Source of the DNA: Candidatus Gastranaerophilales bacterium
GTDB taxonomy: Bacteria; Cyanobacteriota; Vampirovibrionia; Gastranaerophilales; Gastranaerophilaceae
Direction of reading: 5' to 3'
Length of the DNA: 59,201 bases
Assembly (NCBI GenBank): GCA_944322755.1
Contig: CALUPY010000015.1
Coordinates: forward strand, 1-59,201
The notes beneath the pieces are model-generated. The model worked only from the letters and a program-made list of their open reading frames with translations. It had not been told where the DNA came from and searched no databases. The translations under genes were made by a program, and so were the position numbers. Shown here one piece after another: positions 1 to 23,605 of this stretch (the first letter of the stretch is position 1; each line of letters starts with the position of its first letter).

Positions 1-385
1 TTATTGACGTTCGCAAGGTTTTGCACTCCGCTTTGATTTGCTTCGCAAATCCCGCGTCGTCAACCTTGCTCACATGGGCACTTGCTTCGCATCGTGCCCG
101 CCCGAATCCGCTTCTTGGATTATTGACGTTCGCAAGGTTTTGCACTCCGCTTTGATTTGCTTCGCAAATCCCGCGTCGTCTACCTTGCTCACATGGCTGT
201 TCGCTCGCCCTTATGGGCTCGACTCCACAGCCGCCCGAATCCGCCTTGGATTATTCTGCATTCTTCGCTCCTCTCGTTCGCTTTAAAATCCTTTGGATTT
301 TATCGCTTACTACGGAGCTCGAGACGTTACGAGTTTCGGGCTTCGCCCTCACTCTACCGAAAATCCGTTTCAGGATGACAGAATT
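1..385. repeat. GC-richer non-coding tandem repeat block
   Basis: Positions 1-76 recur almost exactly at 120-195, a period of 119 bp. A third, diverged partial copy can be recognised around 230-260, where the words CGCCCGAATCCGC and TTGGATTATT return. The stretch is richer in G and C than the rest of the window. It is full of short self-complementary words such as GCTTCGCAAATC. Short open frames run through it, but all three forward frames are open together and none has a ribosome site or protein-like composition, so I do not call a gene. The block continues off the left edge, so the copy number is unknown. Confidence 0.75.
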
Positions 386-639
386 TTTGAATAAAAATAC
401 GCTTTTAGCTTTTTCTATTTACTTTTCAATTTGCGATTTGTCTTGTTGGGCTGGAAGCTTTATCAGACAGCTTTTACAGTCCGAAAGACCTTACAATTAC
501 GACAAGAGATATCTCTTCATCCCTTTGTCTGTATTATGACCCATTACGACTGAATTGTGAATTGAACTTTAGTTTGAAGTTTTTCATACTAAAGTTGGAA
601 AATAAATAACAAGTATAAATTACAACACGAATGAAAAAA
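386..639. other. Intergenic stretch, no gene seen
   Basis: AT-rich DNA between the repeat block and the 3' end of the amidase gene. I see no convincing open frame, tRNA or strong terminator here. Confidence 0.6.
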
Positions 640-19241: not shown

Positions 19242-21326
19242 ATGGCAAGACAAGTTCCCTTAGAACGAGTAAGAAACTTTGGTATCGCAGCCCACATCGA
19301 CGCAGGTAAAACTACGACAACCGAACGTATCTTATTCTACACAGGAAAAACTCACAAAATCGGTGAAGTTCACGACGGCGCTGCCGTAACCGACTTTATG
19401 GATCAAGAACGTGAACGTGGTATTACTATTCAGTCAGCTGCTGTTACAGCTATGTGGAAAAATCACCAGCTCAACATTATTGACACCCCCGGTCACGTTG
19501 ACTTCACAATCGAAGTAGAACGTTCACTCCGTGTATTAGACGGTGTTGTTGCTGTATTCTGCGCAGTAGGCGGTGTTCAGTCACAGTCTGAAACTGTATG
19601 GAGACAGGCTAACAGATACGAAGTTCCGAGAATGGTTTTCGTAAACAAAATGGACAGAACAGGTGCAAACTTCTATCGTGTAGTTGACCAGTTGAGAAAC
19701 AGACTTAATGCTAATGCTCACCCGATTCAGCTTCCGATTGGTGCAGAAGACCAGTTCACAGGTATTGTTGATTTGATTGATATGAAAGCTCATATTTATA
19801 CAAACGACCTTGGTACGGATATAAAAGTTGAAGACATTCCGGCTGACATGGTAGACAAAGCAAACGAATACCACGCAGCTTTAGTCGAAGCAATTTCCGA
19901 ACACGACGACGATTTGATGATGAAATTCCTTGAAGGTGAAGAACCAACAATGGAAGAACTCAAAAAAGTTTTGAGAAAAGCTACCTGCGAAAACAAAATT
20001 GTTCCGGTTTGCTGCGGTACTGCTTTCAAAAACAAAGGCGTACAACTTCTGTTAGATGCAGTTGTAGATTATATGCCGTCACCGGTTGACGTTAAAGCTA
20101 TCGAAGGTGAACTTCCTGACGGAAGCAAAGTCGAAAGACATTCATCAGAAGACGAACCTTTTGCTGCACTGGCATTCAAAGTTATGACAGACCCTTATGT
20201 CGGTCGTTTAACATTCTTACGTGTATACTCAGGTAAACTTACCTCCGGTTCTTACGTTTTGAATGCAACAAACGGCAAAAAAGAACGTATCTCCAGACTT
20301 GTACAAATGTATGCAGACCAGAGAAACGAAATTCAGGAAGTTTATGCAGGCGATATTTGTGCGGCAGTAGGTCTTAAAGATACTACTACAGGTGATACTC
20401 TGTGCGACGAAAAAGCACCGATTATCTTAGAAAAAATGACATTCCCTGAACCTGTAATTTCGGTCGCAATTGAACCGAAAACAAAAGCTGACCAGGATAA
20501 AATGGGTATTGCTCTTCAGAAACTTGCTGAAGAAGATCCGTCATTCAGAGTTAAATCCGACACAGAAACAGGTCAGACTATTATCTCCGGTATGGGCGAA
20601 CTTCACCTGGATATCATCGTAGATAGACTTTTAAGAGAATTTAAAGTAGATGCTAACGTTGGTAAACCGCAGGTTGCATACAGAGAAACCATCAGAGGTA
20701 CAGCTGATCAGGATTCTAAATTCATTCGTCAGTCAGGTGGTAAAGGTCAGTACGGTCACGTTAAAATCAAAATCGAACCTGCTGAAGAAAATGCCGGATT
20801 TGTATTCGAAAACAAAATCGTCGGTGGTGCTATTCCGAAAGAATACATTGAACCTGCAAGAAAAGGTATGGAAGAAGCGCTTGAAGGTGGTATCATAGCC
20901 GGCTTCCCGATGATAGACGTTAAAGTTACTCTATACGATGGTTCATATCACGAAGTCGACTCTTCTGAAATGGCATTCAAAATTGCCGGTTCTATGGCTA
21001 TCAAAGAAGGTACAAAGAAAGCAAGACCTTGCATTCTTGAACCTATGATGAAAGTAGAAATCGAAGTTCCGGAAGAAAATACAGGTGATATTATCGGTGA
21101 TATTTCCTCAAGACGCGGTCGTGTTGAAGGTATGGAAATCATCGAAGGAACAGGTATTCAGAAAATCCGTGCGATTGTTCCGCTTGCTGAAATGTTCGGA
21201 TACGCTACTGACATCCGTTCAAAAACTCAGGGACGCGGTACATTCTCTATGGAATTCAACAAATATGAACAGGTTCCCTCAAATATCGAAACCGAAATCA
21301 TTTCTAAATCAGGCGTAAACGCTTAG
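19242..21326 (+). CDS. fusA: Elongation factor G
   Basis: GTPase that drives ribosomal translocation. The 694-residue, full-length protein has G1 [16 protein letters not shown]2 RGITI, G3 DTPGHVDF and G4 NKMDR. Domain IV shows [13 protein letters not shown], and domain V is complete. Codon use is visibly more biased than in neighbours (frequent GGT and AAC), as expected for a highly expressed gene. It is a single gene, without rpsL, rpsG or tuf beside it, and is closed by a terminator. Confidence 0.98.
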
Positions 21327-21343
21327 TTTAGTAAATATAAAAC

Positions 21344-21378
21344 AAAAAGACCTTATCAATTTGATAAGGTCTTTTTTT
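21344..21378. terminator. Terminator shared by fusA and the ATP-grasp gene
   Basis: AAAAAGACCTTATCAA pairs with TTGATAAGGTCTTTTT over a single unpaired base (the real loop is a few bases wider). T and A tracts on the two sides make it usable in both directions. It overlaps the ATP-grasp stop codon. Confidence 0.9.
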
Positions 21379-22297
21379 ATTCCTGTAATAATAAACTGAC
21401 AATGCTTTCACTTATCGGATAATTACAGCATTCTTCATCATATAAAAATACCGGTGTTGCATTTGCTTCAAAAAAGACATATTCACCAGATGGTGTCCTT
21501 TTCATATCTATTCCGGAGAATACAAGCCCGAGTGCACTATTTATTTTAAAACAATCCTCAATTACAGAGTCAGATAGTTTTACAGGCATTCGTTTTGCGT
21601 TATCCTGTGCGCGAAAGTCTATTGTATCTGATTGTATCTCTACTGCAAATGCTTCTCTGCCTACAACATAAACTCTAATATCCGTACCATCTATAAGTTC
21701 TTGTACAGTGACCGGTGAATTGGAAAGTGAGGAAAGATTTTCAGAGGTCAGCTTGTCTTCGGTCAAAACAGCAGTGTTTGCCCATCCGCGTACGGGTTTG
21801 TATATAACCTTTTTATTGTTCTTTTCATAAAAATTTATCAATTCATCAGGGTCATTGGTGATTATTGATTCCGGTACTCTGATGCTGTTTTGCTTCAATA
21901 GTTTCAATTGGTAACCTTTGTATTTAAGCATTTCAACTGCATCATGGGGATTTATCTGGGGACAGTCCAAACATTTTAAAAACGAGCCTATTGCCGATTC
22001 TATATTCCAGTACACAATCTCCTGTAATAATTTGTCGTTCTCGGGTTTTACCCTTACTCCGTCATACCATCTGCGATAGACTGCTGTTATATCTGAAAAA
22101 GAAATCTTTTTTGCCTGCGAAGTTCCCTGAATATACCCGCATGTTGGAATATTTGCATCAAAAGTTATTTTTGTTTCATATGGATATTTTGCAGTATCAA
22201 ATAGGATTACATGCGCACCGCGTTTCAGAAGACGCTGCTTCATATCCATTGATGATATGTCTTTTTCAGAACCTATGAGCAGAATGTTTTTGTTCAT
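21377..22297 (-). CDS. MvdC/MvdD-like ATP-grasp graspetide ligase
   Basis: A 306-residue ATP-grasp protein of the group that joins Asp/Glu side chains to Thr/Ser/Lys side chains in graspetides. An N-terminal pre-ATP-grasp domain (1-115) contains YRRW at 74-77, as in MvdC/MvdD-type enzymes. The ATP-grasp core shows KYKGYQLKLLKQNSIRVPES (125-144), VIYKPVRGWANTAVL with Lys167, VQELIDGTDIRVYVVG (198-213), and the metal site D264 and FEANATP (E277, N279). It is transcribed away from the repeat-core precursor gene across a 155-bp shared promoter region, which supports the pairing. A RimK-like glutamate ligase is the main alternative, less likely given the YRRW motif and the neighbour. Confidence 0.85.
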   Translation of the reverse strand: MNKNILLIGSEKDISSMDMKQRLLKRGAHVILFDTAKYPYETKITFDANIPTCGYIQGTSQAKKISFSDITAVYRRWYDGVRVKPENDKLLQEIVYWNIESAIGSFLKCLDCPQINPHDAVEMLKYKGYQLKLLKQNSIRVPESIITNDPDELINFYEKNNKKVIYKPVRGWANTAVLTEDKLTSENLSSLSNSPVTVQELIDGTDIRVYVVGREAFAVEIQSDTIDFRAQDNAKRMPVKLSDSVIEDCFKINSALGLVFSGIDMKRTPSGEYVFFEANATPVFLYDEECCNYPISESIVSLLLQE

Positions 22298-22452
22298 TTT
22301 ATTATGCTAACTTATTTATTACGAATTGTAAAGCCAAGAATGCTTGATATATATGCAAATTAAAATTTTTTTAGAATTTTGAATAAAAAAAACTAAAGTC
22401 TTTTTAAAAAACATCCGATATATATATAGTCACACAGAAACAGGAGAATGAT
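22298..22452. promoter_or_regulatory. Divergent promoter region of the graspetide locus
   Basis: 155 bases of very AT-rich DNA between two divergent starts. TATA-like words (TATATATATAGT, ending at 22430) could be the -10 for the precursor. TATATC-type words on the other strand near 22345-22355 could serve the ligase. AGGAGA at 22442-22447, 5 bases before the precursor ATG, is a strong ribosome site. Confidence 0.5.
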
Positions 22453-22977
22453 ATGAGTGATTATTTTTTGGATTATGTAAGAGCAAATCAGAGATTAAAC
22501 TATGCTGCAAAAAACCAAAACAAAGTCGGTAACGAAGAGAATGAGCCGACGACTCTGGCCTATCCTAGTGACGATGCAGCCGGAGGCACTCCAACTGCAG
22601 AAAAAGAAAATAGTAATAATGAATTATCAGATGTTGAAATTAACTCAATTAAGCAGGAAATTGCCGAATTATTAAATGATGTTTTGGAGGCACTATTTAA
22701 CTTCTTTAAAGAAGATAACAAAAATGTATCAGACAACGCCGAAACTAAAGCATATCCGAGCGATGATGGCGCAGGAGCAATGCCGCCTTCTGCTGATAAC
22801 GAAAATAAGATTCCTGACAGACCTTCATATGAAACTGATGACAAAAAGCCTGCAACAAAAGCTTTTCCAAGCGATGATGCAATTGGCACGATGCCACCGT
22901 CTTTTGGTGGTTTCGGAAATTCAGGAATTGCGACAATGGCGTACCCCAGCGATGATGCAATAGGCGGCATGCCATAA
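22453..22977 (+). CDS. Multi-core graspetide-like (microviridin/marinostatin-type) precursor peptide
   Basis: A 174-residue acidic peptide with four copies of T-x-A-[YF]-P-S-D-D-[AG]-x-G-x-[MT]-P at residues 34-47, 98-111, 135-148 and 161-174. The last copy ends exactly at the C terminus. The motif matches the TxKYPSD core of microviridins and TMRYPSD of marinostatin, where Thr and Ser hydroxyls are esterified to downstream Asp/Glu. Here Ala replaces the Lys that forms the third (amide) ring in microviridins. Between cores 1 and 2 lies an amphipathic helix (~61-88, IKQEIAELLNDVLEALFNFF). The N terminus (DYFLDYVRANQRL) may be a leader; the PFFARFL leader motif of microviridins is absent. The cores are separated by Glu/Asn/Lys-rich linkers. 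No signal peptide and no cysteines. A hairpin terminator follows. Confidence 0.82.
   Translation: MSDYFLDYVRANQRLNYAAKNQNKVGNEENEPTTLAYPSDDAAGGTPTAEKENSNNELSDVEINSIKQEIAELLNDVLEALFNFFKEDNKNVSDNAETKAYPSDDGAGAMPPSADNENKIPDRPSYETDDKKPATKAFPSDDAIGTMPPSFGGFGNSGIATMAYPSDDAIGGMP
22552..22593 (+). repeat. Graspetide core 1 (variable residue Leu)
   Basis: Encodes TLAYPSDDAAGGTP. It is the most diverged copy: TP ends it in place of MP, and it lies before the internal helix. Confidence 0.8.
22744..22785 (+). repeat. Graspetide core 2 (variable residue Lys)
   Basis: Encodes TKAYPSDDGAGAMP, followed by one more Pro. Follows the internal helix and an acidic spacer. Confidence 0.85.
22855..22896 (+). repeat. 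Graspetide core 3 (variable residue Lys)
   Basis: Encodes TKAFPSDDAIGTMP, followed by Pro. Phe replaces the Tyr of the other copies. Confidence 0.85.
22933..22974 (+). repeat. Graspetide core 4 (variable residue Met)
   Basis: Encodes TMAYPSDDAIGGMP and ends at the stop codon (a double TAA). ATMAYPSD is one residue away from the ATMRYPSD of marinostatin. Confidence 0.85.
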
Positions 22978-22998
22978 TAAATAAATTTCTTTTAGTTT

Positions 22999-23040
22999 GG
23001 AAATACAAAAAAAAGGGAGTTTTAAACCTCCCGTATTTCC
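22999..23040. terminator. Hairpin between precursor and cobO
   Basis: GGAAATAC (22999-23006) pairs with GTATTTCC (23033-23040). Inside it GGGAG pairs with CTCCC, with an A8 run on one side of the inner stem. It can end the convergent cobO transcript (T-run on the minus strand) and probably the precursor transcript too. Confidence 0.65.
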
Positions 23041-23071
23041 CCATTTCTCCGTATATTAAAGTTTCAAAACC

Positions 23072-23605
23072 TTAATATTCGATACCTTGTCTTGCCATAA
23101 CACCTATATCAAAGTAGTGTTTAACAGGTTTCATTTCAGTAACAAGATGTGCAAGAGCAATAAGCTCAGGGTGTGCATATCTTCCTGTTAAGACTATTTC
23201 AAGGTTTTCCGGCTTATTTAAAAGAACTTCTTTGATTTCTGAAACTTTTATCATGTTCATTGCAGCGCAGATATTCAATTCATCAAGAATAATGAGTTGG
23301 TATTCACCGCTGTTAATAGCTTTTTTCGCAAACTCCCAGCCTTTTTTGGCTTCTTTGTAGTCTTCCATACAGATGTTGTGTTTGTAAACAACTCTGTCCA
23401 TACCGCACTGAACAACTTTGAAGCGGTCACCAAAATTACATGCAGAAGCAATCTCTCCGTATGTAGTTCCCTGATCACCTTTTGTAAACTGGATAACAAG
23501 AACTTTCCAACCGTGTCCGAGGGCTCTTAATGCCAAACCCAAAGATGCTGTTGTTTTACCTTTTCCATCGCCAGTGTAAATTTGAATGTATCCATGTTCT
23601 AACAA
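23072..23605 (-). CDS. cobO: Cob(I)yrinic acid a,c-diamide / corrinoid adenosyltransferase
   Basis: Transfers the adenosyl group of ATP to cobalt of corrinoids, forming adenosylcobalamin precursors. The 177-residue protein is of the CobA/BtuR/CobO family: P-loop GDGKGKTTASLGLALRALGHG, VLVIQFTKG, ILDELNICAAM and VLTGRYAHPELI. The start is most likely TTG at 23603-23605 with CCGGAGG upstream. No other cobalamin gene is in the window, so it may serve salvage. Confidence 0.94.
   Translation of the reverse strand: MLEHGYIQIYTGDGKGKTTASLGLALRALGHGWKVLVIQFTKGDQGTTYGEIASACNFGDRFKVVQCGMDRVVYKHNICMEDYKEAKKGWEFAKKAINSGEYQLIILDELNICAAMNMIKVSEIKEVLLNKPENLEIVLTGRYAHPELIALAHLVTEMKPVKHYFDIGVMARQGIEY

What the first reader, a model, noticed from the sequence alone, without database searches (positions are those of the whole stretch)
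21377..22977. A graspetide locus with a four-core precursor and one ATP-grasp ligase
Seen: an ATP-grasp gene with a YRRW pre-grasp motif and E277-x-N279 metal site faces a peptide gene with four copies of T-x-A-[YF]-P-S-D-D-[AG]-x-G-x-[MT]-P. Known: microviridins (TxKYPSD) and marinostatin (TMRYPSD) are cyclised by such ligases through Thr/Ser-to-Asp/Glu side-chain esters. Inferred: this is a RiPP system of the same general class. It has a different core, with Ala at the lysine position, DD in place of the usual acidic spacing, and a conserved G-x-M-P tail. It has a single ligase and lies in a probable Melainabacteria relative. It may be an undescribed graspetide subgroup.
Basis: partly seen in the sequence, partly recalled or inferred. 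Interest (0 to 1): 0.93.

Follow-up and report, generated by a model that had tools for sequence, protein, structure and literature searches.

The report
Graspetide locus with hybrid core motif
A gut bacterium related to cyanobacteria carries a two-gene system that probably ties a string of four small peptide heads into rings, likely serine-protease inhibitors; the enzyme belongs to the plesiocin branch but the peptide heads look like those of microviridin, a new combination within a known class.

Summary
A 306-aa ATP-grasp ligase (21377-22297, -) faces a 174-aa precursor (22453-22977, +) with four cores TxA[YF]PSDD[AG]xG. All four species of the genus held have the pair, with 3 or 4 cores. 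T, A, P, S, D, D and G are identical in 15 of 15 cores, and the ligase is under strong purifying selection. It is very probably a graspetide system.

The ligase does not belong with microviridin/marinostatin ligases (that clade is rejected, AU p = 0.0001). It groups 100/100 with plesiocin synthetase PsnB and with ligases from Gastranaerophilales and Cyanobacteria whose precursors carry TT-x-A-x-G-E-E-G-G cores. The leader shares a short F[IVL]x[FY] motif with the Gastranaerophilales ones. So "Ala at the lysine position" and "DD" match the Ala and EE of TTxAxGEEGG; the YPS part is what resembles microviridin. The G-x-M-P tail is not conserved across the genus.

Predicted chemistry: one Thr-to-first-Asp ester per core, plus a possible nested ester in core 1 (4-5 dehydrations, not 8), giving a four-headed serine-protease inhibitor with L, K, K, M at the specificity position. 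Dehydration, topology and activity are untested. New variant of a known kind.

The parts
21377..22297 (-). ATP-grasp peptide ligase (graspetide synthetase, PsnB lineage), 306 aa
   Evidence: Pfam ATPgraspMvdD 9.7e-9 and RimK ATP-grasp 1.9e-11; best solved relative PsnB 7drm, E 1.2e-28; tree 100/100 with TTxxGEEGG ligases and PsnB
22453..22977 (+). multi-core graspetide precursor, 174 aa
   Evidence: four TxA[YF]PSDD cores; orthologues beside the ligase in all four species of the genus held; NCBIfam microvirid_RiPP 25.3 bits, just under its cut-off of 26
22453..22551 (+). leader, residues 1-33 (MSDYFLDYVRANQRLNY...), motif YFLDY
   Evidence: F[IVL]x[FY] shared with 14 of 16 TTxxxEEGG precursors of the order; no PFFARFL; no double-Gly site before core 1
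22552..22584 (+). core 1: TLAYPSDDAAG, preceded by Thr (TTLAYPSDD)
22627..22725 (+). conserved spacer between cores 1 and 2, by its sequence probably amphipathic (EINSIKQEIAELLNDVLEALFNFFKEDN); possibly a second recognition helix
   Evidence: kept in all four species; role inferred
22744..22776 (+). core 2: TKAYPSDDGAG
   Evidence: one core fewer in G002, aligned here
22855..22887 (+). core 3: TKAFPSDDAIG
22933..22965 (+). core 4: TMAYPSDDAIG
21344..21376 (.). bidirectional intrinsic-terminator-like hairpin between fusA and the ligase
   Evidence: 15-pair stem with T run on both strands

Best explanation
This is a two-gene graspetide locus. The leader of the precursor (YFLDY region) docks on the ATP-grasp ligase. 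The ligase uses ATP to activate the side-chain carboxyl of the first Asp of each PSDD and joins it to the Thr six residues upstream as an ester (T-x-A-[YF]-P-S-D, i to i+6). Core 1, which has two Thr and two Asp (TTLAYPSDD), may get a second, nested Thr-Asp ester as in plesiocin hairpins. The product would be a string of four ring-locked loops with L, K, K and M at the position after Thr, which sets protease preference in microviridins. It most likely acts as a multi-headed serine-protease inhibitor in the gut. The enzyme lineage is that of plesiocin-type TTxxxxEE synthetases; the core has changed from TTxAxGEEGG to TxAYPSDDAxG. Shown: genes, motif, conservation, enzyme kinship, partner cores of the relatives. 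Inferred: ester chemistry, ring pattern, inhibitor function, direction of core change.
For: Pre-grasp MvdD and ATP-grasp domains. PsnB (plesiocin synthetase) is the nearest solved protein, E 1.2e-28 against 8.9e-17 for MdnC; CdnC lies between at 2.4e-19. Tree of 45 ligases: the window ligase with PsnB, 19 Gastranaerophilales and 10 cyanobacterial ligases 100/100; holding it with MvdC/MvdD costs 108 log-likelihood units, AU p 0.0001. Nearly all of these relatives sit beside TT-x-A-x-G-E-E-G-G precursors; of 116 such cores, the fourth position is Ala in 98 and the third varies as M, L, K, Q, Y. Shared leader motif in 14 of 16. 15 of 15 PSDD cores across four species keep T, A, P, S, D, D, G. Ligase dN/dS about 0.07 at dS 1.7-2.7. 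The variable residue of T-x-K (position 5) decides which protease microviridin inhibits (PMC7823629).
Against: No chemistry was measured. The structure model was too poor to use (mean pLDDT 39). The wider 55-row tree, with long branches, did not reject grouping with MvdC/D (p 0.33). No protease or exporter lies next to the locus, so release and export are unexplained. The i+6 ring is inferred by analogy with microviridin; the sister enzymes presumably form i+5 and i+7 rings.
Confidence: 0.75

Rival explanations
1. Marinostatin/microviridin-type system: two esters per core (Thr to first Asp, Ser to second Asp), eight in all, made by an MvdD-like enzyme of microviridin descent.
For: Core 4 ATMAYPSDD resembles the published microviridin motif TxKxPSD; NCBIfam microvirid_RiPP model reaches 25.3 of 26 bits.
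Against: No PFFARFL leader; Ala in place of Lys/Arg; ligase clade with MvdC/D rejected; Ser to second Asp is only i+2, whereas microviridin uses i+3 (own knowledge); changing the ring size of microviridin K by even one residue gave no cyclic product (PMC12291112).
Confidence: 0.12
2. Plesiocin-type TTxxxxxDD hairpins are the real target: only core 1 (two Thr, two Asp) is modified as a bicycle, and the other copies act as decoys or protein-binding repeats.
For: TT is present only in core 1 (three of four species); sister enzymes sit beside TT..EE cores.
Against: All copies are equally conserved, including those without the first Thr, and in G002 core 1 itself is VTLA.
Confidence: 0.08
3. The ligase is a RimK-like amino-acid ligase or other ATP-grasp enzyme not acting on the neighbour; the repeat protein is an unmodified surface or linker protein.
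For: RimK-like ATP-grasp domain scores.
Against: MvdD pre-grasp domain; placement among peptide macrocyclases; pair kept divergent and adjacent in four species while the motif is absent elsewhere in the order.
Confidence: 0.05

Closest known systems
Plesiocin and its synthetase PsnB (graspetide group 2, TTxxxxEE)
   Same: Ligase lineage, single ligase, multi-core precursor, Ala and acidic pair in register with TTxAxGEEGG relatives, related leaders in the same order
   Different: Core is TxAYPSDDAxG, not TTxxxxEE; one more residue between Thr and acid; Asp instead of Glu; second Thr mostly lost
Microviridin / marinostatin (graspetide group 1; MvdC/MvdD, MdnB/MdnC)
   Same: T-x-x-[YF]-P-S-D core segment, same Thr-to-Asp spacing, variable residue after Thr
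   Different: No PFFARFL leader, no Lys, no further acids spaced after PSD, ligase in another clade
Multi-core microviridins (AMdnA type, PMC5934393; G494 locus L125 here)
   Same: Several PSD cores in one precursor
   Different: PFFARFL leader; in L125 two MvdC/D ligases and cores TxKYPSDGEDG
TTxAxGEEGG loci of Gastranaerophilales (e.g. L028, L053, L058; second locus L029 in the sister species G001)
   Same: Divergent or nearby precursor, about 40% identical ligase, leader motif F[IVL]x[FY]
   Different: Core sequence and spacing

Membership tests
Graspetides (class) | ATP-grasp ligase with MvdD-type pre-grasp domain and intact ATP/metal site | tested here: met
   Pfam PF21068 and PF08443 above cut-off; K167, R208, D264, E277, N279 invariant in four species
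Graspetides (class) | Adjacent precursor with Thr/Ser preceding Asp/Glu in repeated cores | tested here: met
Graspetides (class) | Side-chain ester/amide macrocycles (loss of 18 Da each) | not testable with these tools
   needs co-expression and mass spectrometry
Microviridin/marinostatin | PFFARFL leader motif | tested here: not met
   leader is MSDYFLDYVRANQRLNY; a PFFARFL control was seen in L125
Microviridin/marinostatin | TxKxPSD core followed by acidic residues | tested here: not met
   TxA[YF]PSDD; the PSD part matches, Lys does not
Microviridin/marinostatin | Ligase in the MvdC/MvdD clade | tested here: not met
   AU p 0.0001, 45 rows; not rejected in the 55-row tree with long branches (p 0.33)
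Plesiocin type (group 2) | Ligase in the PsnB/TTxxxxEE lineage | tested here: met
   100/100; PsnB best PDB hit
Plesiocin type (group 2) | TTxxxxEE core | tested here: not met
   no TTxxxxEE in the precursor; nearest is TTLAYPSDD in core 1
RimK-type amino-acid ligases | Full-length RimK match above curated cut-off | tested here: not met
   rimK_fam 74 bits against cut-off 143

The most novel reading that the evidence does not exclude
A plesiocin-lineage synthetase has switched its substrate from Glu-paired TTxxxxEE hairpins to Thr-Asp i+6 loops on a YPSD core, arriving independently at the same loop that microviridins use: convergent evolution of one inhibitor loop from two graspetide enzyme lineages, within one bacterial genus.
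Probability: 0.5. Interest if true: 0.65.

Novelty: new variant of a known kind. Interest (0 to 1): 0.5.

Why it matters
Graspetide surveys report that cores vary under one ligase branch, but usually without showing the steps. Here both core types occur in one genus (even in one species, G001) with related ligases and leaders, so a change of ring spacing and of acid (Glu to Asp) can be tested directly by swapping cores between two natural enzymes. The Makarova survey took as initial candidates only proteins of 150 aa or less (PMC8939145), so a 174-aa precursor would have been missed. It also adds predicted multi-headed protease inhibitors to uncultured gut Melainabacteria.

Tried and rejected
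Scans of viral contigs with the ligase found no relatives; with the core pattern they gave six single matches, only one of them in a reading frame with the motif and that one a lone copy. tblastn of the precursor in plasmids gave nothing. Phage records hold only distant ATP-grasp matches. A search of the order with the microviridin precursor model rang nowhere, controls included, so it says nothing. A microviridin ligase query in the order found two other ligases (G218, G071) but with different cores, so no local microviridin donor was seen. The G057 core-pattern hit is a lone copy in what reads as an unrelated gene. The first 55-row tree was too burdened by long branches for a firm test. An attempt to find an empty site between fusA and btuR failed because the two genes are not neighbours outside the genus. 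Lee 2020 and Ramesh 2021 are not held, so absence of this core from their lists is not shown.

Full report
OBSERVATION. The four cores are TLAYPSDDAAG, TKAYPSDDGAG, TKAFPSDDAIG and TMAYPSDDAIG. No shuffle out of 200,000 gave even one such core. The locus lies between fusA and a cobalamin adenosyltransferase gene.

CONSERVATION. The three other species of the genus held carry the pair in the same place and orientation; their public records are titled Candidatus Gastranaerophilales. One species (G002) has three cores. Over 15 cores, T, A, P, S, D, D and the Gly ten residues after Thr never vary; Y/F alternates; the residue after Thr is K, L or M. The tail G-x-M-P is not general: G002 has GESP, GSSP and GG. 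The ligase is under purifying selection (dN/dS about 0.07), as is the precursor (0.05-0.16, with saturated dS). In 383 genomes of the order the core pattern occurs only in this genus, with one stray copy elsewhere.

WHAT THE ENZYME IS. Pfam finds the MvdD pre-grasp domain and a RimK-like ATP-grasp domain. All NCBIfam graspetide-ligase models match below their cut-offs, TIGR04187 best. Among solved proteins the plesiocin synthetase PsnB (7drm) is clearly nearest, E 1.2e-28, against 2.4e-19 for CdnC and 8.9e-17 for MdnC (the names PsnB for 7drm and MdnC/MdnB for 5ig9/5ig8 are from my own knowledge, 5IG9 = MdnC also in PMC7823629). I collected ligases from the order and from the rest of the phylum and made trees. 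With ten long or odd rows left out, the window ligases, PsnB, 19 Gastranaerophilales ligases and 10 cyanobacterial ligases form one side, 100/100, and MvdC/MvdD/CdnC the other; forcing the window ligases to MvdC/D costs 108 log units, AU p 0.0001. Of 14 columns that separate the two sides, the window ligases follow the TT side in 11 and the Mvd side in one. In the first tree, with those ten rows included, the test did not reject (p 0.33); I give the second more weight, but the first is a caution. Where inside its half the window clade sits is not resolved (85/42 with the Gastranaerophilales TT ligases).

WHAT THE RELATIVES MODIFY. Beside nearly all of these ligases lies a precursor with TT-x-A-x-G-E-E-G-G cores, 1 to about 14 copies, in Gastranaerophilales and in Cyanobacteria alike; a few (for example L026, L027, L050, L109) have no recognisable precursor nearby. 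This is the plesiocin motif TTxxxxEE. The MvdC/D ligases instead can sit beside PFFARFL / TxKYPSD precursors (L125), a good internal control. The sister species G001 carries both kinds: the PSDD pair and, elsewhere, a TTLAVGEEGG precursor with a 40% identical ligase (L029). Leaders of 14 of 16 TTxxxEEGG precursors in the order contain F[IVL]x[FY], found in shuffles at about 0-11%; the window leader has FLDY (shuffle frequency 0.011). The motif was chosen after looking, so this is supporting, not independent, evidence.

READING. What is new is the Y-P-S stretch, which gives Thr and the first Asp the same distance (i+6) as in microviridin. By parsimony the PSDD core is derived, since the flanking lineages have TTxxxxEE; whether it arose by local change or by import of a piece of microviridin core cannot be told from so short a sequence. 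No microviridin-type donor was seen in the order: the two ligases nearest to MdnC (G218, G071) have other cores.

MECHANISM. By analogy with known graspetides (nucleophilic Lys, Ser, Thr precede the acids; PMC7823629; plesiocin has two esters per repeat, PMC12291112), I expect the invariant Thr to be joined to the first Asp in each core. Ser to second Asp would be i+2 and is unlikely; a nested second ester is possible only in core 1, which has TT and DD. Hence four or five dehydrations rather than eight. The residue after Thr (L, K, K, M here) corresponds to position 5 of microviridins, which sets specificity: in microviridin L, F5L improved elastase inhibition, F5R trypsin, F5Y chymotrypsin (PMC7823629). 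A four-headed serine-protease inhibitor in the gut is the most likely role; this is inference. No double-Gly site precedes core 1, and no peptidase or exporter is adjacent, so release is unexplained; Makarova et al. note that the peptidase is not typically encoded in these loci (PMC8939145).

NOVELTY. Core change under one ligase branch with a kept leader is a known pattern (PMC8939145). This core was not found in the papers held, but the two main classification papers are not held. I call it a new variant of a known kind.

Noticed in passing
L029 (G001 C2:1-6600), 1-620 (-): A species of the same genus has a second graspetide locus with TTLAVGEEGG and TTEAVGEEGG cores; the precursor runs off the contig end.
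   Followed up: partly
L055-L058, L061-L063: Very long graspetide precursors (384-560 aa) with up to about 14 TTxAxGEEGG cores in Gastranaerophilales, with variants such as VTYALGENG and STKAMYEEGG.
   Followed up: partly
L159 2446-2721 (-), L160 2436-2726 (-): Another ligase type in the order (28-30% identical to a microviridin ligase) beside a short peptide ending in TMT[KR][AS][YF]SDSGDE and followed by a gene that reads as a membrane protein; likely a further graspetide group.
   Followed up: no
L064 2395-2790 (+), L065 6047-6652 (+): Distant ligases (30% identical) in the same loci as proteins with repeats such as TSEKIxxEK or TKISEKxxxEK; possible precursors without the usual DD/EE pair.
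   Followed up: no
window 19242-23605: Ligase and precursor are far more diverged between species (dS 1.7-2.7) than flanking fusA and btuR (dS 0.2-0.5), which suggests exchange or fast turnover of the pair at a fixed site.
   Followed up: partly
window 22627-22725: A conserved, probably amphipathic spacer (..AELLNDVLEALFNFFKEDN..) lies between cores 1 and 2 and faintly resembles the leader; it may be a second docking site.
   Followed up: no
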